DNA of 64,000 nucleotides from Acidisoma silvae (GTDB lineage Bacteria; Pseudomonadota; Alphaproteobacteria; Acetobacterales; Acetobacteraceae), in contig NZ_JAESVB010000005.1 of assembly GCF_020618775.1 (NCBI RefSeq), positions 186,001 through 250,000 on the forward strand. The letters run 5' to 3'. Of the stretch, positions 44,994 to 56,926 are shown piece after piece. A program made the position numbers and the translations under genes. The notes below the pieces were generated by a model that was not told the origin of the DNA, made no database searches, and saw nothing but the letters and a program-made list of their open reading frames with translations. Each line of letters opens with the position of its first letter. Positions within the stretch are counted from its first letter, which is position 1.

Positions 44994-46235
44994 ATGATGG
45001 CTGAGTATGGTCGGATCAAGGCTGCCCTGGAAGCGCGCCCGCCGCGCCATTCCCTGCCGCAATATCTGTACAATGATGATGCGGTCTTCACCTTCGACCA
45101 GAAGGCGATCTTCCATCGCAGCTGGATCCTGATCGGTTTTGAGGTCGAATTCCCGACGGCCGGCAGCTACCAGTCCCTGAAAATCGGCGGCGCGCCCATT
45201 CTCGTCATTCGCGGCAAGGACGGCGTGCTGCGTGGTTTCCACAACACCTGCCGCCATCGCGGTGCCGAGCTTTGCCCCGAAGGCAAAGGCAAAAGCGCCC
45301 GTCTGGTCTGTCCCTATCATCAATGGACGTACGACACCGCCGGCAAGCTGATTTTCGCCGGCCGCATGGGCGATGATTTCAATGCCGCCGACCACGGTCT
45401 GGCGCCGGTCCATGTCCAGACGCTGGAAGGCACGGTCTATGTCTGCCTGGCCGAGGACGCGCCCGATTTCGAACCCTATGCCAAAGCCGTGGCGCCGATG
45501 CTGGCCGCCCATAATCTGAAGGACGCCAAGATCGCCCATGAGGCGACCCTGATGGAAAAGGCGAACTGGAAGCTGGTCATGGAAAACGCGCGGGAATGCT
45601 ATCACTGCGCCGGCCGCCACCCCGAACTTGCCGTTACCTTCCCGATCTATGCCAAGGGCAATTTCGAGACGGTCAGTGATCACGAGGCGAATTTCGACGC
45701 GCGCATGGCCGAACTGGGCCTGCCCAGCGCCCCGGTCGAGGCCGATTGGTGGCAGGCGGCGCGTTTCCCGCTCAACGAAGGCATGGTCTCCATGACCATG
45801 GACGGGCAGCCCGCCGTCGCGAAGTTGATGTGTCCGATCGGCGACGGCGATATCGGCAGCCTGCGCTGGGCGCTGGAGCCGCACAGCTTCTGCCACTCCT
45901 CCGGTGACTTCACATTCATGTTCACCTGCATTCCCATCAGCACGAAGGAAACCCTCGTACTCGGCAAATGGCTTGTCCATAAGGATGCGGTGGAAGGGGT
46001 GGATTACGACCTGGACAACCTGGTGAAGCTTTGGGACGTCACCAATATGGAGGATCGCGATCTTTGCGAACTCAATCAGCGTGGCGTCGACAGCCCGGCC
46101 TACCGCCCCGGCCCCTATTCCGAAGTGGCCGAGTCCCTGGTGCTGCGCTTCACCGACTATTACGTCACGAAGGCGCTGGACTATATCGACGCGGTTGAGG
46201 GCGAAAGACAGCTTGCCGCCATGGCAGCCGATTGA
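44994..46235 (+). CDS. Rieske-type oxygenase alpha subunit (quaternary-ammonium demethylase-like)
   Basis: The 413-residue protein has a Rieske centre (Cys86, His88, Cys106, His109 in CRHRG and CPYHQW). The mononuclear iron site follows, in MENARECYHCAGRHPEL (His204, His209). The bridging residue before the first His is Glu201, not the usual Asp; a Glu there is seen in GbcA, CntA and stachydrine demethylase, which act on N-methylated quaternary amines. No beta subunit gene is present, which fits that homotrimeric group. It probably removes one methyl as formaldehyde. First gene of a six-gene operon; GGAGAA precedes the ATG. Confidence 0.92.
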   Translation: MMAEYGRIKAALEARPPRHSLPQYLYNDDAVFTFDQKAIFHRSWILIGFEVEFPTAGSYQSLKIGGAPILVIRGKDGVLRGFHNTCRHRGAELCPEGKGKSARLVCPYHQWTYDTAGKLIFAGRMGDDFNAADHGLAPVHVQTLEGTVYVCLAEDAPDFEPYAKAVAPMLAAHNLKDAKIAHEATLMEKANWKLVMENARECYHCAGRHPELAVTFPIYAKGNFETVSDHEANFDARMAELGLPSAPVEADWWQAARFPLNEGMVSMTMDGQPAVAKLMCPIGDGDIGSLRWALEPHSFCHSSGDFTFMFTCIPISTKETLVLGKWLVHKDAVEGVDYDLDNLVKLWDVTNMEDRDLCELNQRGVDSPAYRPGPYSEVAESLVLRFTDYYVTKALDYIDAVEGERQLAAMAAD

Positions 46236-46237
46236 GC

Positions 46238-47278
46238 GTGACGGAGAGACCGATCTGGCCCGGCGGCGACGACCTGCTGCGCTGCCTCAGCGTCGCCCAG
46301 GAGGCCCCTGGCGTCAAAACCTTCCGCTTCGCGCCCGCCAGCGGCGCGGCGGTGCGCTTTCATGCCGGGCAATTCGTGACGCTGCGCCTGCCGCTGGCGG
46401 GCGGCGACGTCTGGCGCTGCTTCACCATCGCCTCCTCCCCTTTGCAGGAGGACGCCATCGACCTGACCATCAAGGCGCTGGGGGACGCGGATACCATCAA
46501 CGCCTCCGGCTCGGCCTGGATGCATCATCACCTTCATGCCGGGATGACGCTGGCGGCACGTGCGCCCACCGGCCCCTTCTGCCTGATGCACCCGCCGGAG
46601 CGGCCGCTGCTGCTGGTCTCGGCCGGCAGCGGGGCCACGCCCATGGCCGCCATCGCCCGCTTCCTGCGCGATATCGGCGACCGCACCCCGGTGCATTACA
46701 TCCACCTCGCCCGCAGCCCAGCCGATTGTCTGTTCAGGCCCGAGATCGAGGCGATTGCGGCCGAACTCGGCGGCTGGAAGCTTGACTGGCTGACGAGCGC
46801 CGAGCAGGGTCGCCCCTCTGCCGAGACCTTCGCGGCAATGGCCCCCGATCTTGCCGATCGGGAGGTCTTCTGCTGCGGCCCGGCCGGCTTCATGGCGGCG
46901 ATCGAGACCGCTCACGCTCAGGCCGGCGGCACGGCTGACGCCTTCCGCAAGGAGGCTTTCGTGGGCATTTCCATCCCTGAACTGGCGACCACGCACACGG
47001 CGGAGGCTGCGACCGGCAGCTTTACCGTGACCTTCCAGCCCTCCGGCAAGACCACCACCATCGGGCCGGAGGACACGGTTCTGACCGCCGCCGGCAAGCT
47101 CGGCATTCCCATCTCCTATGCCTGCGGCGACGGCATCTGCGGCACCTGCCGCATCACCAAGCTGGAAGGCGCGGTTGAGATGACCCATCAGGGCGGCATC
47201 GAGGATGACGAAGTCGCCGATGGCGAAATTCTGGCCTGTTGCGCCTATCCCCGCTCCAATCTTGTCGTGAAAGTCTGA
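46238..47278 (+). CDS. Oxygenase reductase with FAD, NAD and 2Fe-2S domains
   Basis: The 346-residue protein has a flavin domain (RCFTIASSP), a pyridine nucleotide domain (LLVSAGSGATPMAAIARF, VFCCGPAGFM) and a C-terminal plant-type ferredoxin (Cys in CGDGICGTC and LACCA). It passes electrons from NAD(P)H to the Rieske oxygenase just upstream, like GbcB. Start is uncertain: TTG 46232 overlaps the oxygenase stop, while GTG 46238 lies two bases after it. Confidence 0.92.
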   Translation: MTERPIWPGGDDLLRCLSVAQEAPGVKTFRFAPASGAAVRFHAGQFVTLRLPLAGGDVWRCFTIASSPLQEDAIDLTIKALGDADTINASGSAWMHHHLHAGMTLAARAPTGPFCLMHPPERPLLLVSAGSGATPMAAIARFLRDIGDRTPVHYIHLARSPADCLFRPEIEAIAAELGGWKLDWLTSAEQGRPSAETFAAMAPDLADREVFCCGPAGFMAAIETAHAQAGGTADAFRKEAFVGISIPELATTHTAEAATGSFTVTFQPSGKTTTIGPEDTVLTAAGKLGIPISYACGDGICGTCRITKLEGAVEMTHQGGIEDDEVADGEILACCAYPRSNLVVKV

Positions 47279-47280
47279 CC

Positions 47281-48546
47281 ATGGCTGACCCCAAAACCGG
47301 CCCTGCCTTGTCACTGGAGACGCTGGCGATTGGCGCGGGATATGACCCGGCCGATCATAATGGGGCCGCCAAGCCGCCGATCTATATGACGTCCACCTTC
47401 GTCTATCCCTCGGCCGCCGTGGCGCGGGCGGTGCATCAGGCGTTTTTCGACGGCGACGTGCCGGAGCGCTCGGGCAAGAACGGCTTCATCTATGCGCGCC
47501 TCGATCATCCCAATCTGGTCATGGCGCAGACGCGTATCGCGACGCTGGACCGGGCCGAGGACAGCGCGCTGTTCTCCTCCGGCATGGCGGCCGTCTCCAC
47601 CCTCGCCCAATGCTTCCTGCGGCCGGGCGACAGTGTGATGCATAGCCGCCCGATCTATGGCGGCACGGATATGTTCCTCAATACCCATATGACGGAAATG
47701 GGCGTCCATCCCTTCGGCTTTACCGATGGCGTGGATGAGGCATCGCTGATCCAGGTGGCGGATGCCGCCATGGCCAAAGGCCCGCTGACGCTGATCATGG
47801 TGGAAAGCCCGGCCAACCCCACCTGCGCCATTGCCGATATCGCGCTGATCAGCCGACTGGCGGATCGTATCGCGCTGGCGCAAGGCCGGCGGCCGATCAT
47901 CTCGGTCGACAACACATTCCTCGGCCCCTTCCTGCAAAGCCCGCTGGAACACGGTGCCGATCTGTGCCTGACCTCGCTCACCAAATATGCCGGCGGTCAT
48001 AGCGACTTCATGGGCGGCAGCGTCAGCGGCTCGGCAGCCCTGGTGGGCCGCCTGAAAAAGCTGCGCACGCTGCTGGGCAATCATGCCGATCCGCATAATT
48101 GCTGGATGCTGCTGCGATCCGTCGAAACCATGGCGCTGCGTACGGAACGCGCGGTTGCCAATGCAAAGCAGATCGCTGTCTTTCTGCGCGACCACCCGAA
48201 AGTGATCCGCATCACCTATCTCGATTTTCTGGAAGAGGGTTCCGCCGCCCGCGCGGTCTATGACCGGCAATGCGCGGGGCCTGGCTCCACCTTCTCCTTC
48301 GACGTGGAGGGTGGCGAGGCCGGTGCCTTCCGCTTTCTCGACCGTCTGAAGCTGCTGCGCTTCGCCGTGAGCCTTGGCGGGGCGGAGACCTTGATCTGTC
48401 ACCCGGCCACGACCACGCATTACGCCGTGCCGGAAGAAAACCGCATGGCCGTGCATATCGGCCCGGCCACCATGCGCGTCTCCGTCGGTATCGAAACCGC
48501 CGCCGATCTCATTGCCGATCTGACCCAAGCGCTGGAGGTCGTCTGA
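47281..48546 (+). CDS. Cys/Met metabolism PLP-dependent enzyme
   Basis: The 421-residue protein belongs to the cystathionine gamma-synthase/lyase family. Marks are FIYARLDHPN near residue 69, FSSGMAAVSTL, cofactor Asp210 (SVDNTF) and Schiff-base Lys235 (TSLTKYAGGHSD). Family members eliminate or replace groups at the beta or gamma carbon of amino acids. The Cys that marks methionine gamma-lyase (YGCT) is Gly here (YGGT), so it is not a standard one. Placement inside a demethylation operon suggests it acts on the demethylated amino acid. It starts two bases after the reductase stop. Confidence 0.9.
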   Translation: MADPKTGPALSLETLAIGAGYDPADHNGAAKPPIYMTSTFVYPSAAVARAVHQAFFDGDVPERSGKNGFIYARLDHPNLVMAQTRIATLDRAEDSALFSSGMAAVSTLAQCFLRPGDSVMHSRPIYGGTDMFLNTHMTEMGVHPFGFTDGVDEASLIQVADAAMAKGPLTLIMVESPANPTCAIADIALISRLADRIALAQGRRPIISVDNTFLGPFLQSPLEHGADLCLTSLTKYAGGHSDFMGGSVSGSAALVGRLKKLRTLLGNHADPHNCWMLLRSVETMALRTERAVANAKQIAVFLRDHPKVIRITYLDFLEEGSAARAVYDRQCAGPGSTFSFDVEGGEAGAFRFLDRLKLLRFAVSLGGAETLICHPATTTHYAVPEENRMAVHIGPATMRVSVGIETAADLIADLTQALEVV

Positions 48547-50009
48547 TGGAAGACGAAGACGTCGTATCCGACTTTCACGCCATCGGCGAGAAACATACCA
48601 AGGCCGACGAGCATACCGACATCCTCGTTATCGGTGCCGGCCCTGCCGGTCTCGCCGCCGCCATCACGGCCGCGAAGGCCGGGGCGCAGGTCATGCTGGT
48701 GGATGAAAACCCGCTCGGCGCCGGGCTGATCGGCATGGATGTGCCGCTGCTGTTTGGCAATCGCTGGACAGCCGCCGTGCAGAACCAGGGCCGTATGCTG
48801 GAACAGGTGCTGACCGCCAATCCCGGTCTGGAAGAAGCCTTCGAGCTCGGGATCGATGTCAGGCTCGGCACCTATGCCTGGGGTGCCTTCACCGGTGGCC
48901 CCAATCTGCGGTCCCTACCGGAACCCGTCGTTGGCCTCGCGGACGAAACCCGCTCCTGGCTGGTCGGTTTCCGCCGCCTGATCATCGCGACCGGCGCGCG
49001 CGATCTGGTCTATTCCTTCAAGGGCTTCGAGACGCCGGGCGTGGTCGGCGCGCTGGGGCTGACATCCCTCATCCAGACCTATGCCGCCTTCAACGGCCAG
49101 CGCATCGTCATCCTCGGCAGCGGCGACCTTGCTATCGCGACCGCCGCCATGGCGCTGGATGCCGGCTATGACGTGGCGGCTCTGGTGGAGGTGCGGGATG
49201 CGCCGCAGGCCGATGTCTCCGCCCTCGTCGCGCGTGGCGTCGCGATCGTCACCGGCCATGCCATTCTGGAAGCGGAGGGCAATGCCGAGGGCGTCACCGC
49301 CGCGCGGCTGGCTCCCGTCGCGGGTGGCGATGCGCACAGCCTCGCCTGCGACACCATCTGCCTCGCCATCGGCGCCGTGCCGGTGATCGATATCGCCGAT
49401 GTCGTGGGCGCCAAGATCACGCGCAACCAAGCCGGCGCCTTCGTGCCGGGCAGCCTTCCCGAGGGTGTCTCCGTCGTGGGTGATGCCGCAGGCTTGAGCC
49501 CTGATGCGCTGCCCGCCGATGCCGACGCCTATCGCATGGACTGGATGCGCGCCCTGATGACGACCGGCGGACAGGACGTCATCGCCTGTTCCTGCGAGGA
49601 GGTCTCCCGCCGCGACCTGCTGGACGTGCAACCGCCGCGCTACCTTGCCGCGCCGACGGACAAGCACAACAGCCTGGCGCAGCTGGCGGAAGATGGGCCG
49701 GTCAACCAGGACCAGATCAAGCGGCTGACGCGCGCCTGCATGGGCCCCTGCCAGGCCCGCCGCTGCCGCGAGCAGGTGGCGATGATCATGGCCATCGGCG
49801 CGGACCGGCCGCTGTCTTCCATCGCACTCGCCGGCTACCGCGCCCCCGTGCGCCCGCTGCCGCTCGGCGTATTGGCGGCGGCCTCCGAAACGCCGGGCAT
49901 GGTCGAAGGCTGGAACGTCTGGTTCGGCATCCGCACGCAATGGGTGCCCTACGAGGATATCGGCACGGAGCGCGAGATTGAGCGCGCCGGCCGCATGGCC
50001 CATTTCTGA
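48546..50009 (+). CDS. FAD/NAD(P) oxidoreductase with BFD-type 2Fe-2S domain (HcnB/OoxA-like)
   Basis: The 487-residue protein has FAD motif VIGAGPAGLAAAI, a second dinucleotide motif ILGSGDLAIATAA, and GDAAGL. A C-terminal [2Fe-2S] region has Cys in IACSCEEV and CMGPCQARRC. It matches the alpha subunits of opine oxidase, hydroxyproline dehydrogenase and HcnB, which pair with a DAO-type subunit; the next gene supplies that partner. Its ATG shares a base with the previous stop (TGATG). Confidence 0.9.
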   Translation: MEDEDVVSDFHAIGEKHTKADEHTDILVIGAGPAGLAAAITAAKAGAQVMLVDENPLGAGLIGMDVPLLFGNRWTAAVQNQGRMLEQVLTANPGLEEAFELGIDVRLGTYAWGAFTGGPNLRSLPEPVVGLADETRSWLVGFRRLIIATGARDLVYSFKGFETPGVVGALGLTSLIQTYAAFNGQRIVILGSGDLAIATAAMALDAGYDVAALVEVRDAPQADVSALVARGVAIVTGHAILEAEGNAEGVTAARLAPVAGGDAHSLACDTICLAIGAVPVIDIADVVGAKITRNQAGAFVPGSLPEGVSVVGDAAGLSPDALPADADAYRMDWMRALMTTGGQDVIACSCEEVSRRDLLDVQPPRYLAAPTDKHNSLAQLAEDGPVNQDQIKRLTRACMGPCQARRCREQVAMIMAIGADRPLSSIALAGYRAPVRPLPLGVLAAASETPGMVEGWNVWFGIRTQWVPYEDIGTEREIERAGRMAHF

Positions 50010-50021
50010 GAGGCGCGCGGA

Positions 50022-51221
50022 ATGTCAGAGATTAAAAAGAGCGCGTCGGTCATCGTCATCGGTGGCGGCGTCACCGGCCTCAGCGCCGCCTGGTGGCTGG
50101 CGCGGGACGGGGTGGATGTCCTGGTCATCGACAAGGGCATCGTCGGCTGGGAGGCATCGGGCCGCAATGGCGGCGGCTGCACCCATTACCAGAGCCCGCT
50201 TTTCCATGAGGAGCAGCGGCTTTGGCCGCAGATGGACGAGTTGCTGGGCTATCCGACCGAGCATCGGCCGGAACGCGTTATCATGGCGCTGACCGAGCAG
50301 CAGCTGTCGCAATACAAGGACCATGGCGATATCTGCGCCGCCATGGGCTACCGGTATGAGACGCTGGACCCGAAGCAGACGCGGGAACTGGTGCCGCTCG
50401 CGGGCGATAATGTCGTCGGGTCGGTCTATTACCATTTCGGCGGCCAGGCCAATCCGCAGCGCACGGTGCAGGCCTATGCCTGGGCCTTGCAGGATCTCGG
50501 CGGCCGCATTCTGCAACACACCGCCGTCTCCTCCCTCATCGTCGAGGCTGGCCGCGTCAAGGGCGTGGAGACCTCGCTCGGCCGCTTCGATTGCGACCAT
50601 CTGGTGCTCGCCGCCGGGCCGCAGACCGGCGCGCTGCTGGAATCGATCGGCATCTATCTGCCCGTGGCCCCGGCGCGGGCCGAGATGATCGTGACCGAGC
50701 CGCTGCCGCTGATGAAGATCGGCGGCGTTGACGGTAATGGCCTTTATGGCCGGCAGACGCTGCGCGGCAACCTCGCCTATGGCGGCGGCCCGCATGAATG
50801 GCTGGCCGATACGCCCGCCCAGGGCGGCCCGGTGACGCGCCCGTCCACGCAGCTGCTGCAAAACCTGTCCAAGCGGCTGGTGGAGCTTTTCCCGAAAGCC
50901 GGCCATGTGCGCGTCATCCGCTCCTGGGCCGGGATCATCGAGAATACGCCGGACGGCCGCCCGGTGATCGACCGACTGTCGGAGCCCGACAACCTGACCG
51001 TCACCACCATGAGCAGCGTCGGCTTTGGCCTGTCACCGGCCACCGGCCACGCGATCCGCGATCTGGTGATCGACGGCGCATGCAGCTTTGCGGATATCGA
51101 CAAGCTCGGCCTGCACCGATTCGCGAACCTGCCGCGCGATTGGCGCGTGCGGCAGGGCTGGGTTCCGCCTATCCTGCCGGATTATGACTCGGATGCACGT
51201 GCGCAGATGGCGCAGGCTTGA
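50022..51221 (+). CDS. DAO-type FAD oxidoreductase (HcnC/OoxB/SoxB-like)
   Basis: The 399-residue protein starts with VIVIGGGVTGLSAAWWLARDG and has GWEASGRNGGG near residue 42 and late PDGRPVIDRL. It resembles the catalytic subunits that oxidise secondary amines (sarcosine, hydroxyproline, opines) and pass electrons to the alpha subunit encoded 12 bases upstream. In this operon a likely step is oxidation of an N-methyl amino acid. Substrate not determined. Confidence 0.9.
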   Translation: MSEIKKSASVIVIGGGVTGLSAAWWLARDGVDVLVIDKGIVGWEASGRNGGGCTHYQSPLFHEEQRLWPQMDELLGYPTEHRPERVIMALTEQQLSQYKDHGDICAAMGYRYETLDPKQTRELVPLAGDNVVGSVYYHFGGQANPQRTVQAYAWALQDLGGRILQHTAVSSLIVEAGRVKGVETSLGRFDCDHLVLAAGPQTGALLESIGIYLPVAPARAEMIVTEPLPLMKIGGVDGNGLYGRQTLRGNLAYGGGPHEWLADTPAQGGPVTRPSTQLLQNLSKRLVELFPKAGHVRVIRSWAGIIENTPDGRPVIDRLSEPDNLTVTTMSSVGFGLSPATGHAIRDLVIDGACSFADIDKLGLHRFANLPRDWRVRQGWVPPILPDYDSDARAQMAQA

Positions 51222-51235
51222 GAAGGGCAAAGGCA

Positions 51236-52360
51236 ATGGCGGCCAAGGGCAAGGTTCTGATCGTCGGTGCGGGCATCGCGGGTCTGTCGACCGCGTGGAA
51301 TCTGAAGCGGCGCGGTTACGACATCGAAATTTTCGATCAGGGGCCGATTCCCAATCCGATCAGCTCCTCCTGGGACGAGCATCGCATCACCCGCCACGCT
51401 TACGGCGAGTTCGAAGGCTATGCGCATCTGATGCCCTATGCCTTCAAGATGTGGGACAAGCTGTGGAAGGATCTGGGCGCCACCCATTACGAGCCGACGG
51501 GCGCCACCTATTTCATCCATGAGGAGACGCCCTGGTATCACGGCACCTCAACCGCCCTGTCGGAAATGGGCATCCGCTACCGCGACATTCCGCTGTCCAA
51601 GGCAGCTGACCGCTTCCCGATGTTCAATCTGGAAACCGTGACGCGCATCGTGGAGACCGACGGCGCCGGCGTGCTGTTCCCCTATCGCATCGTGCGCGGG
51701 CTGGTGAACTTCCTGGGCGCTCATGGCGTCACCTTCCATGCCCTGCATCAGGTCACCGCGCTGGACGCCGAAAAGGGTACCGTCACCGCCAATGGCAAGA
51801 CTTTCAGCGGCGATTACGTCGTCATCGCCGCCGGTGCCTGGGCCGACAGGCTGGTGCCGGACCTGCGCCGCGACGCCCATGCCTCCCGCCAGGCCGTCAT
51901 CTTCCTGGCGCCCCCGCCGGAGCTGACGGAAGCCTGGCACGAGGCCGGGGTGATGGCCGATCTGGGCGATGAGACCAGCTGCTACGTGCTGCCGCCGCGC
52001 CGGGGCATGCGCCTGAAGATCGGTGACCATGTCTTCACCCATCGCGGCGACCCGGACGGCGACCGCCGCGCGACGGACGAGGACGTGGCGCGCCTGATGC
52101 GCGTGCTGCCGAAAGTGCTGCGCAACTACGAGGGCTATCAGATTCTGGAGCGCAAGGCCTGCTTCTATACGGTGACCGAGGATGAGCATTTCATCCAGAA
52201 GCCGCTGGGGCCGAAGGGCTGGCTGATCAGCGCCTGTTCCGGCCATGGCTTCAAGCTGGGCGCGCTGACGGGCGAACTGGCGGCCCGCGCCATTACCGGT
52301 GAGACGCCCGCCGCCGAGATCACCGAAATCGCGGCCGGACGCCAACGCATCAAAGCCTGA
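51236..52360 (+). CDS. Monomeric sarcosine oxidase-like flavoprotein
   Basis: The 374-residue protein has VLIVGAGIAGLSTAWNLKRRG, SSSWDEHRITRHAYG, and CFYTVTEDEHFI with Cys309. The latter matches the Cys that binds FAD covalently in monomeric sarcosine oxidase and N-methyltryptophan oxidase. SACSGHGFKLG near the end is also conserved. It should oxidise a secondary or tertiary N-methyl amine with oxygen, giving formaldehyde and peroxide. ATG 51236 follows the previous stop by 14 bases. Last gene of the operon. Confidence 0.92.
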   Translation: MAAKGKVLIVGAGIAGLSTAWNLKRRGYDIEIFDQGPIPNPISSSWDEHRITRHAYGEFEGYAHLMPYAFKMWDKLWKDLGATHYEPTGATYFIHEETPWYHGTSTALSEMGIRYRDIPLSKAADRFPMFNLETVTRIVETDGAGVLFPYRIVRGLVNFLGAHGVTFHALHQVTALDAEKGTVTANGKTFSGDYVVIAAGAWADRLVPDLRRDAHASRQAVIFLAPPPELTEAWHEAGVMADLGDETSCYVLPPRRGMRLKIGDHVFTHRGDPDGDRRATDEDVARLMRVLPKVLRNYEGYQILERKACFYTVTEDEHFIQKPLGPKGWLISACSGHGFKLGALTGELAARAITGETPAAEITEIAAGRQRIKA

Positions 52361-55051: not shown

Positions 55052-55261
55052 TCAGTCTGAAATAGGGGGAAACATATTGTGGGATGCGGCACCGTCCTCG
55101 GTCGCCGGCAGCGGCTGGCCGTCCTCATCCCGCCCGCGCGCCTGGGTTTTGCGGCGGCGCAGATTGGCGCGCAGCGCCTCGGCACGGCGCGCGTCACGCG
55201 CGGCTTTGGCGGCTTCCGCCGCAGGCCCGATGGGGGGCTGGCTTTTGTCCCTGTCGCTCAC
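55052..55261 (-). CDS. Small basic conserved protein
   Basis: The 69-residue product is rich in Arg and Ala, with a helical AAKAARDARRAEALRANLRR segment and an acidic, Pro-containing tail. It resembles a short protein found near cell-wall genes in many alphaproteobacteria, but I cannot name a function. It is 66 bases upstream of dcd on the same strand. Confidence 0.6.
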   Translation of the reverse strand: MSDRDKSQPPIGPAAEAAKAARDARRAEALRANLRRRKTQARGRDEDGQPLPATEDGAASHNMFPPISD

Positions 55262-55435
55262 AGGAACCGCATCTGCGACGGGCGGAGGGGAAAGTCAATT
55301 TTAACGGCGCCGCCGGTAACACGATATGTGATGCTCGATCCGCCGATCTTGGCCGATTCCTGCTTGCGGCTGAGCGGGGGGAGTTCAAGGATTGCATCAA
55401 GTTCATCCGGCCGTAACCACTCCATGGGAGACCAC

Positions 55436-56926
55436 ATGACCGCCAGCAAGGAGCAGTTGGACCATATCGCCCGGATCGATGCCGCCGAAGCCGGGCTGAA
55501 ACACGGGCTGAGCAACCGGCAGATCCAGATGATCGCCATCGGCGGCGCCATCGGCACCGGCCTGTTTCTCGGCGCGGGCGCGCGGCTGCAAGTCTCGGGG
55601 CCGGCGCTGGCCATCGTCTATCTGGTCTGCGGCGTCGTCGCTTTCCTGATCCTGCGGGCATTGGGCGAGCTGGTGATGCACCGCCCGACCTCGGGCAGTT
55701 TCGTCTCCTATTCCCGTGAATTTCTGGGCGAGCGCGCGTCCTATGTCGCCGGCTGGCTCTATTTTCTGAACTGGGCGATGACCGGCATCGTCGATATCAC
55801 CGCCGTCGCCCTTTATATGCACTACTGGCATATTTTCGGCGATGTGCCGCAATGGGCCTTCGCGCTCATCGCGCTCGTGATCGTCACCGCCATCAATATG
55901 GTCGGCGTCAAATGGTTCGGCGAGATGGAATTCTGGTTCGCCATCCTGAAGGTGGCGGCGCTGGTTCTGTTCCTGATCGTCGGCGTGGTGGTGCTGGGCG
56001 CGGGTATCCATGTCGACGGCCATACGCCCGGCTTCGCCATGATTTCTCATAATGGCGGCATTTTCCCACATGGATTATTGCCAGCGATCGTACTGACCCA
56101 GGGCGTCATCTTCGCCTATGCCGGCGTCGAAATTCTGGGTGTGGCCGCCGGCGAGGCTCAGGACGCCCGCAAAATCCTGCCGCGCGCCATCAACAGCGTC
56201 ATCTGGCGTATCGCCATATTCTATGTCGGCTCGGTGGTGCTGCTGGTCATGCTGCTGCCTTGGAACGCCTATCACGCCGGGCAAAGCCCTTTCGTGACCT
56301 TCTTCCATGCGCTCGGCATCGAAGGCACCGGCACGGCGATGAATATCATCGTCATCACCGCCGCCCTCTCAAGCCTCAACTCCGGCCTCTATTCCACAGG
56401 GCGCGTGCTGCGCTCGCTGGCCATCGGCGGGTCCGCCCCGCCGCAGCTGGCCCATCTGAACGCCCAGGCCGTGCCCTATAAGGGCATTATGGTGACGGTC
56501 GTCGTCTATCTCATCGGCGTCGTGCTGAACTATGTGGTGCCGAGCCAGGTCTTCGAGCTGGTTCTCAATATCGCTTCCATCGGCGTGCTGAGCACCTGGG
56601 CCTTCATCGTCGTCTGCCAGATGAAGCTGCGCAGCTCGATCAACCGGGGCGAGAACGAGGCCGTTTCCTTCCGCATGCCCTGGGCGCCCTTCACCTCATG
56701 GCTGACCCTCGCCTTTCTCCTGGCGGTCGTGGTGGTGATGGGTTTCGACTATCCGGACGGCACTGTGACGGTGGCCGCCATCCCGGTTCTTGCGATCATT
56801 CTCGCTCTCGGCTGGATCCTGCTGCACCGGCGCGCCGAGGTGGAGAGTTCCTCCCTGCCCTCGGCCACGCTCACCCGCCGCATCTTCGACAGGGATGAGG
56901 ATAAGGATCGGCGCGACCGGCATTGA
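55436..56926 (+). CDS. Amino acid permease (AnsP/GabP type)
   Basis: The 496-residue protein has twelve membrane helices and the classical start HGLSNRQIQMIAIGGAIGTGLFLGAG. SGSFVSYSREFLG, and FAYAGVEILGVAAGEAQDARKILPRAI, are typical of the amino acid transporter family of APC. Asparagine, GABA or D-Ser/Gly are possible substrates. ATG 55436 has GGGAG five bases upstream; an in-frame ATG at 55424 overlaps that site. Confidence 0.9.
   Translation: MTASKEQLDHIARIDAAEAGLKHGLSNRQIQMIAIGGAIGTGLFLGAGARLQVSGPALAIVYLVCGVVAFLILRALGELVMHRPTSGSFVSYSREFLGERASYVAGWLYFLNWAMTGIVDITAVALYMHYWHIFGDVPQWAFALIALVIVTAINMVGVKWFGEMEFWFAILKVAALVLFLIVGVVVLGAGIHVDGHTPGFAMISHNGGIFPHGLLPAIVLTQGVIFAYAGVEILGVAAGEAQDARKILPRAINSVIWRIAIFYVGSVVLLVMLLPWNAYHAGQSPFVTFFHALGIEGTGTAMNIIVITAALSSLNSGLYSTGRVLRSLAIGGSAPPQLAHLNAQAVPYKGIMVTVVVYLIGVVLNYVVPSQVFELVLNIASIGVLSTWAFIVVCQMKLRSSINRGENEAVSFRMPWAPFTSWLTLAFLLAVVVVMGFDYPDGTVTVAAIPVLAIILALGWILLHRRAEVESSSLPSATLTRRIFDRDEDKDRRDRH

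What the first reader, a model, noticed from the sequence alone, without database searches (positions are those of the whole stretch)
44994..52360. Six-gene operon combining a Rieske demethylase, a Cys/Met PLP lyase and three amine flavoproteins
Gene overlaps and 2-14 base gaps show a single operon. The Rieske enzyme carries the bridging Glu (Glu201) seen in GbcA, CntA and stachydrine demethylase. A covalent-FAD sarcosine oxidase-like enzyme (Cys309) and an HcnB/HcnC-like pair can remove further N-methyls. A cystathionine lyase-family enzyme, lacking the YGCT cysteine of methionine gamma-lyase, sits in the middle. Together they suggest stepwise demethylation of an N-trimethyl amino acid followed by beta/gamma cleavage, perhaps of a sulfur-containing betaine. 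I do not know a described pathway with this set. No transporter, regulator or formaldehyde-handling gene is inside the operon.
Basis: partly seen in the sequence, partly recalled or inferred. Interest (0 to 1): 0.78.

Follow-up and report, generated by a model that had tools for sequence, protein, structure and literature searches.

The report
Operon that strips and splits betaines
These six neighbouring genes look like a pathway that removes the three methyl groups of a natural betaine one by one and then breaks the exposed amino acid in two; the target may be the head group of phosphorus-free algal and fungal membrane lipids, for whose breakdown no bond-cutting enzyme is known.

Summary
Confirmed: six same-strand genes (44994-52360) encode a Rieske oxygenase of the quaternary-ammonium type, its reductase, a Cys/Met-family PLP enzyme, a SoxA/HcnB-like and a SoxB/HcnC-like flavoprotein, and a monomeric-sarcosine-oxidase-like enzyme. 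The set is conserved. PLP relatives at 55.7% identity or more sit beside the Rieske and/or HcnB/HcnC genes in 24 of 24 loci (five cut by contig ends); relatives at 52.3% or less did so in 0 of 82 examined. Beside the operon, relatives carry a LysR gene (15 of 24), betaine/choline-type ABC transporter genes (5) and formaldehyde-detoxification genes (2); 3 of 7 loci without the monomeric oxidase have a heterotetrameric sarcosine oxidase. A sister cluster joins the same demethylases to another, methionine-gamma-lyase-like PLP enzyme. Best reading: three N-demethylations expose a primary alpha-amine, which the PLP enzyme then uses to release a small uncharged side group. The substrate is unproven; my leading candidate is glyceryl-N,N,N-trimethylhomoserine (DGTS head group), then methionine betaine. 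Ten searches of the held papers listed no such pathway. New variant of known betaine-demethylation systems.

The parts
44994..46235 (+). Rieske oxygenase alpha subunit; presumed first N-demethylase (NMe3 to NMe2)
   Evidence: Rieske and Ring_hydroxyl_A domains; GbcA model 439.5 bits, cut-off 670; nearest PDB 3n0q, 3vca, 4qup; C-x-H...C-x-x-H at 86 and ECYHC at 201
46232..47278 (+). Reductase with FAD, NAD and plant-type 2Fe-2S domains, electron donor of the Rieske protein
   Evidence: Pfam domains; GbcB model 237 bits, cut-off 500; present in 6 of 24 operon loci
47281..48546 (+). Cys/Met-family PLP enzyme; presumed beta/gamma lyase or gamma-substituting enzyme
   Evidence: NF005455 508.6 bits, cut-off 504; PF01053; nearest solved structures 5ijg and 7swh; PLP lysine K235, YGGT at 126
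48546..50009 (+). SoxA/HcnB-like NAD(P)/FAD partner subunit
   Evidence: Pyr_redox_2 and SO_alpha_A3; in 23 of 24 operon loci
50022..51221 (+). SoxB/HcnC-like FAD amine dehydrogenase or oxidase, presumed second N-demethylase (NMe2 to NHMe)
   Evidence: DAO domain; nearest PDB 1y56_B and sarcosine oxidase beta subunits; 62-90% identical in relatives
51236..52360 (+). Monomeric-sarcosine-oxidase-like FAD enzyme, presumed third N-demethylase (NHMe to NH2)
   Evidence: NF008425 187.8 bits, cut-off 257; nearest PDB sarcosine oxidases; K-x-C-F-Y cysteine in 11 of 11 relatives

Best explanation
A catabolic operon for an N,N,N-trimethylated alpha-amino acid (a betaine) with a leaving group on its beta or, more likely, gamma carbon. 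The Rieske oxygenase and reductase turn NMe3 into NMe2, the HcnB/HcnC pair turns NMe2 into NHMe, and the covalent-FAD sarcosine-oxidase-like enzyme (a heterotetrameric sarcosine oxidase in some relatives) turns NHMe into NH2, each step giving formaldehyde. The primary amine is what PLP needs to form its external aldimine. The Cys/Met-family enzyme then releases the side group by elimination (2-oxo acid plus ammonia) or by substitution with water. Shown: genes, conserved order and linkage, motifs, and betaine-transport and formaldehyde genes in relatives. Inferred: the assignment and order of the demethylations, the lyase reaction, the substrate. Candidates in order: glyceryl-N,N,N-trimethylhomoserine (deacylated DGTS), methionine betaine, another gamma-substituted trimethylhomoserine.
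For: Linkage: 24 of 24 high-identity PLP loci beside Rieske (22) and/or HcnB (23), 0 of 82 low-identity loci examined. Two PLP types are separated by one branch with SH-aLRT 100; G002 and G077 hold both. A second Cys/Met PLP subfamily is joined to Rieske and MSOX homologues in G021, G135, G132. MSOX in 12 loci, heterotetrameric SoxA in 3 of 7 loci without it and 0 of 12 with it. Formaldehyde dehydrogenase plus S-formylglutathione hydrolase directly after HcnC in L049 and L063. OpuAC and choline-permease genes in 5 loci. Neutral V363, I70 and M131 where human cystathionine lyase has E339, E59, R119 (numbering recalled); entry 5tsu, E59N/R119L/E339V, is titled as methionine-depleting.
Against: No assay. 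Close Rieske homologues occur without any PLP gene near: 2 loci of G018, L142, and 4 class genomes at 49-52%. MSOX is absent from at least 7 loci, 4 of which show no replacement in the stretch held. The window's genus has no regulator or transporter next to the operon. Homology alone does not prove that HcnB/HcnC or MSOX act on N-methyls of this substrate.
Confidence: 0.66

Rival explanations
1. Methionine betaine (N,N,N-trimethylmethionine) is the substrate: complete demethylation to methionine, then gamma-elimination to methanethiol, 2-oxobutyrate and ammonia.
For: Nearest characterised folds after 5ijg and 7swh are methionine gamma-lyases; V363 and the neutral pocket are methionine-lyase-like; the variant cluster carries a methionine-gamma-lyase-like PLP gene.
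Against: Cys116 is missing in both PLP types (YGGT; YSNT) and K240/D241 read R/T and R/Y (their role is recalled). Methionine gamma-lyase models fall short: 306.7 bits of 549.7. One literature search for the compound gave 5 papers, none on its breakdown by title.
Confidence: 0.2
2. The PLP enzyme performs gamma-replacement: it swaps the side group for water or a thiol, giving homoserine or homocysteine instead of a 2-oxo acid.
For: The family is named cystathionine gamma-synthase (NF005455) and 5ijg is titled O-acetylhomoserine sulfhydrolase. Canavanine-gamma-lyase gives homoserine and hydroxyguanidine (passages of PMC10018355).
Against: I recognised no thiol-supply or homoserine dehydrogenase gene beside the operon, but these need not be linked.
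Confidence: 0.15
3. The operon degrades an ordinary betaine (glycine betaine, stachydrine or similar); the PLP enzyme serves a side task in one-carbon or sulfur metabolism and does not act on the betaine skeleton.
For: Rieske and reductase resemble GbcA/GbcB and Stc2; demethylation produces one-carbon units; some close Rieske loci lack the PLP gene.
Against: Strict linkage of one PLP clade (24 of 24) and independent use of a second PLP subfamily. The own genome holds other Rieske genes of the group.
Confidence: 0.13

Closest known systems
Glycine betaine monooxygenase GbcA/GbcB and the later dimethylglycine and sarcosine steps
   Same: Rieske plus reductase followed by flavoprotein demethylation of an N-trimethyl amino acid
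   Different: Model scores far below cut-off for both subunits; a PLP enzyme is added
Stachydrine demethylase Stc2/Stc4 of Sinorhizobium meliloti
   Same: Same Rieske group and ECYHC-type centre; 42.6% identical over the whole length; next to a reductase and a LysR gene
   Different: The annotated locus lists no HcnB/HcnC pair and no Cys/Met PLP gene; proline has no beta/gamma leaving group (chemical reasoning)
Carnitine monooxygenase CntA/CntB
   Same: Bridging Glu and Cys pair
   Different: CntA releases trimethylamine (passages); weaker similarity, 127 bits over residues 20-215
HcnABC and heterotetrameric sarcosine oxidase (SoxBDAG)
   Same: HcnB/HcnC- and SoxA/SoxB-like pair
   Different: Full-length SoxA and SoxB model scores not met; no separate small HcnA-like gene in the operon (HcnA recalled)
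Methionine gamma-lyase
   Same: Fold, neutral pocket residues
   Different: Lacks Cys116 and the K240/D241 pair; model cut-off not met
Canavanine-gamma-lyase and the RtxA dihydrorhizobitoxine synthase domain
   Same: PLP or O-acetylhomoserine-sulfhydrylase-like enzymes working at a gamma C-O bond of a homoserine derivative (passages: PMC10018355; PMC3222319; the ether structures are recalled)
   Different: Act on free amino acids, not after demethylation; not compared with the window by sequence

Membership tests
Group V Rieske oxygenases (quaternary ammonium) | C-x-H...C-x-x-H cluster motif, bridging Glu and C-x-x-C pair | tested here: met
   Window and 21 of 21 relatives; pattern from passages of PMC10952381
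Group V Rieske oxygenases (quaternary ammonium) | Oxidation of a quaternary ammonium substrate | not testable with these tools
   Needs an enzyme assay
Glycine betaine monooxygenase GbcA (NF058607) and GbcB (NF058606) | Curated cut-off reached | tested here: not met
   439.5 of 670 and 237 of 500 bits. None of 5 other Rieske proteins tested reached 670 either, the S. meliloti Stc2 locus protein included
Stachydrine demethylation system | Locus make-up of stc2-stc4 | tested here: not met
   One annotated locus compared: no HcnB/HcnC, no Cys/Met PLP gene
NF005455 cystathionine gamma-synthase family protein | Curated cut-off reached | tested here: met
   508.6 of 504 bits, barely; the clade is set apart from standalone members
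Methionine gamma-lyase | Cys116 and K240/D241, model cut-off | tested here: not met
   YGGT, R262/T263; 306.7 of 549.7 bits; residue roles recalled
Cystathionine gamma-lyase/synthase | Glu59, Arg119, Glu339 (human numbering, recalled) | tested here: not met
   I70, M131, V363 by motif alignment
Monomeric sarcosine oxidase / N-methyltryptophan oxidase | Covalent-FAD cysteine | tested here: met
   K-x-C-F-Y in window and 11 of 11 relatives; covalent bond itself not testable
Monomeric sarcosine oxidase / N-methyltryptophan oxidase | Model cut-offs | tested here: not met
   187.8 of 257 and 126.9 of 479.65 bits
HcnABC / heterotetrameric sarcosine oxidase | Complete subunit set and model cut-offs | tested here: not met
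   141.3 of 1164 (soxA), 122.1 of 529.45 (soxB); no further small subunit in the operon
Catabolism of the DGTS head group (proposed, no known family) | Activity on glyceryl-trimethylhomoserine | not testable with these tools
   Needs assay; btaA (PF11899) absent from 18 of 18 carriers, so the lipid would be foreign

The most novel reading that the evidence does not exclude
The operon is the missing route for bacterial breakdown of the DGTS betaine-lipid head group. After lipases remove the fatty acids, glyceryl-N,N,N-trimethylhomoserine is imported, demethylated three times to glyceryl-homoserine, and its ether bond is cut by the PLP enzyme to glycerol plus 2-oxobutyrate and ammonia (or homoserine). 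Demethylation comes first because PLP can bind only a primary amine.
Probability: 0.3. Interest if true: 0.85.

Novelty: new variant of a known kind. Interest (0 to 1): 0.64.

Why it matters
Betaine lipids stand in for phospholipids in algae, non-flowering plants, fungi and some phosphate-starved bacteria. [quoted passage not shown] This operon offers one concrete and cheaply testable solution, demethylate first and then use a PLP lyase, with a named strain that carries the core genes (Novosphingobium capsulatum HAMBI_0103). Even with another substrate, joining complete N-demethylation to a Cys/Met-type lyase would extend betaine catabolism to side-chain-substituted betaines.

Tried and rejected
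Rejected or unsupported: (1) glycine betaine operon: model scores far below cut-off, though no Rieske protein tested reached that cut-off, so this is weak. (2) Stachydrine pathway: the annotated locus lacks HcnBC and PLP genes. (3) Cystathionine as substrate: charged binding residues absent (numbering recalled). (4) Recycling of the cell's own DGTS: no btaA in 18 of 18 carriers; 1 of 38 other genomes searched has it. (5) The sister PLP family as canavanine-gamma-lyase: the three rhizobial loci opened list no B3/4 gene in the stretch; the enzyme's paper was not held. (6) The shorter HcnB of the window as a defect: the gap lies in a variable linker.

Led nowhere: habitat (some carriers are MAGs whose titles suggest lakes; not checked); lipase or glycerol neighbours: a CocE/NonD hydrolase after HcnC in L141, one further down in L066 by my reading, a PETase/PAF-AH-like gene in L065; too scattered. 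The AlphaFold model is of moderate confidence (mean pLDDT 78.1) and adds only the fold.

Weak spots: the PLP tree has one very long outgroup (a second was planned but did not enter); rooted on it, the 21 standalone rows fall inside the operon rows, so which type arose from which is open. In the Rieske tree L150 entered as a 67-residue misread fragment, so its place means nothing; the PLP-operon Rieskes are not one clade (4 changes of label), and the group that holds them (81/64) also holds L025, L027, L142 and the variant loci. Sister loci: of 86 lower-identity places (my count) I read the surroundings of 10; one search kept 80 of 579 relatives and all 80 were screened. L052 and L074 seem to be one contig (equal contig length), so 82 counts it twice. 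L121 has a Rieske relative at 28%, L084 and L093 an HcnC relative at 28-29% near the sister PLP; I counted these as absent. Of 173 plasmid records I opened 5, of 329 also 5. Most neighbours were named by my reading of translations; only those went to family models. The variant PLP protein was scanned without its C-terminal end.
Full report
OBSERVATION. The six reading frames are present on the + strand between 44994 and 52360. Junctions are a 4-base overlap (or a 2-base gap with the GTG start), a 2-base gap, a 1-base overlap, a 12-base gap and a 14-base gap (sequence). Families: Rieske oxygenase, GbcB-like reductase, Cys/Met PLP enzyme, SoxA/HcnB-like, SoxB/HcnC-like and monomeric-sarcosine-oxidase-like proteins. 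Nearest solved relatives: 3n0q, 3vca, 4qup for the Rieske protein, 5ijg and 7swh for the PLP enzyme.

CONSERVATION, FROM THE PLP GENE. The six genes keep their order in 5 of 5 genomes of the genus. In 299 family genomes, 71 have a PLP relative at E up to 1e-90; 13 places are at 57% identity or more (two are fragments), the rest at 51% or less. In 385 class genomes 31 have one; besides the window 2 are at 61-62%, the rest at 52% or less. A scan of named genomes kept 80 of 579 relatives: 8 at 56-63%, 72 at 52% or less. One plasmid, of Novosphingobium capsulatum, has one at 58.9%. This gives 24 high-identity loci. The PLP gene has the Rieske gene (directly or across the reductase) in 22 of 24 and HcnB in 23 of 24; 19 show all four core genes on one strand in the same order (in L045 HcnC runs off the contig), and 5 are cut by contig ends: L047, L048, L062, L064, L065. 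Of 82 low-identity loci examined (10 and 72), none has these neighbours, apart from three weak hits at 28-29% that I counted as absent. The two PLP types lie on two sides of one branch, SH-aLRT 100 (rooting unsafe). G002 and G077 hold both types, so they are paralogues.

CONSERVATION, FROM THE RIESKE GENE. In 299 family genomes 17 have a relative at E up to 1e-125, 18 loci. PLP gene of the clade beside it: 12. Different PLP gene: 2 (G021, G135). Contig of 3-4 kb that shows MSOX but ends early: 2 (G189, G231). Neither: 2, both in G018. In 385 class genomes 7 have one: the window, G337 and G650 with the PLP gene; 4 genomes of one other family, at 49-52%, without it (one of these lies at a contig end).

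WHAT RELATIVES ADD (24 loci). LysR gene related to that of the G021 variant: 15. ProX- and ProW-type transporter genes: 5 (L041, L042, L043, L050, L068); OpuAC domain and choline permease model. S-(hydroxymethyl)glutathione dehydrogenase and S-formylglutathione hydrolase directly after HcnC: L049, L063 (one of each put to the models and above cut-off). Reductase: 6. MSOX after HcnC: 12. Seven loci continue past HcnC without MSOX (L046, L049, L061, L062, L063, L066, L141); 3 of them hold a heterotetrameric sarcosine oxidase alpha gene (L046, L049, where it is over 5 kb away, and L066; model 1040.8 of 1164 bits in L066), against 0 of the 12 with MSOX. The genus has formaldehyde dehydrogenase (5 of 5; 4 above cut-off, one partial) and OpuAC proteins (5 of 5) elsewhere; no transporter or LysR gene stands next to the operon there.

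A SECOND PLP ENZYME WITH THE SAME PARTNERS. In G021 and G135 the Rieske homologue (55-56%) is divergent from an MSOX homologue (59%) that is followed by a methionine-gamma-lyase-like PLP gene, with HcnB/HcnC homologues several kb away. The model scores of that PLP protein, scanned without its C-terminus, are below cut-off (438.9 of 666). G132 shows Rieske, LysR, MSOX and this PLP gene on a 4.1-kb contig. Two subfamilies of the Cys/Met fold were thus joined to the same demethylases, which I take as the best sign that a lyase step belongs to the pathway (inference).

PLP ACTIVE SITE. Positions that differ between the clade (22 sequences) and its relatives (82) include D130 for E, T231 for Y or L and C373 for S; D130 is four residues after Tyr126, T231 four before Lys235. 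By alignment to methionine gamma-lyase and recalled numbering, V363, I70 and M131 stand where human cystathionine lyase has E339, E59 and R119. Entry 5tsu carries E59N, R119L and E339V and is titled as methionine-depleting. This argues for a small uncharged distal group. V363 and neutral residues are also found in the standalone family (V363 in 82 of 82), so they do not set the operon enzyme apart.

MECHANISM AND SUBSTRATE. Three kinds of N-demethylase and a PLP enzyme that needs a primary amine point to a trimethyl alpha-amino acid with a leaving group (inference). Carnitine, stachydrine, hercynine and ergothioneine lack a suitable leaving group or alpha-amine (chemical reasoning). Glyceryl-N,N,N-trimethylhomoserine fits: trimethyl alpha-amine, gamma ether, uncharged leaving group. 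A review states that enzymes which break this ether bond are not identified (PMC9892843, passages). Precedents for gamma C-O chemistry: canavanine-gamma-lyase (PMC10018355, passages) and RtxA (PMC3222319, passages). Methionine betaine fits too. No result here decides; carriers lack btaA (0 of 18).

LITERATURE. Ten searches of the held library listed no paper on this gene set or on bacterial catabolism of the DGTS head group. I saw listings (at most 20 rows of each) and the passages cited; PMC10132767 passages concern DGTS synthesis under phosphate stress only. The library lacks most subscription journals, so prior work may exist.

VERDICT. Real, conserved and coherent. Mechanism class likely (0.66); substrate open (DGTS head group 0.3). 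The organism is an alphaproteobacterium by its named relatives, perhaps of the Acetobacteraceae (inference; not tested).

Noticed in passing
L026:9076-13798, L148:8080-11890, L150:32-4103: Variant cluster: Rieske divergent from LysR/MSOX/methionine-gamma-lyase-like PLP (motif YSNT), with HcnB/HcnC homologues nearby in L026 and L148.
   Followed up: partly
L032:5493-10471 (own genome) and L034:5064-10131: A second Rieske-HcnB-HcnC set without a Cys/Met PLP gene, beside genes that read like amidohydrolases, an epimerase and a peptide-type binding protein (my reading).
   Followed up: no
L146:1-15285: An MSOX homologue (58%) beside genes that read like a beta-keto acid cleavage enzyme and a carnitine-dehydrogenase-like protein (my reading).
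   Followed up: no
L147:7246-11125: HcnB-HcnC-MSOX together without Rieske or PLP gene, as expected of a module for an N,N-dimethyl substrate.
   Followed up: no
L046:17116-17592, L068:16083-17078, L085:16346-17230: A fatty-acid-desaturase-family gene near three of the operons (PF00487 in L068; homologues); role unknown.
   Followed up: no
48546-50009: The window's HcnB lacks a linker of some 30 residues present in its nearest relatives, but others are as short.
   Followed up: yes
L164, L165, L166: In one other alphaproteobacterial family a related Rieske gene (49-50%) lies beside genes that read like a PhyH-type oxygenase (my reading).
   Followed up: no
PDB 5ijg and 7swh: The two solved structures of the sister PLP family bear different enzyme titles (O-acetylhomoserine sulfhydrolase; putative cystathionine gamma-synthase); I saw no assay for either.
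   Followed up: no
55079-56926: An amino-acid-permease-like gene (my reading) 3 kb downstream, past other genes; not seen beside the operon in the stretches of the four genus relatives.
   Followed up: partly
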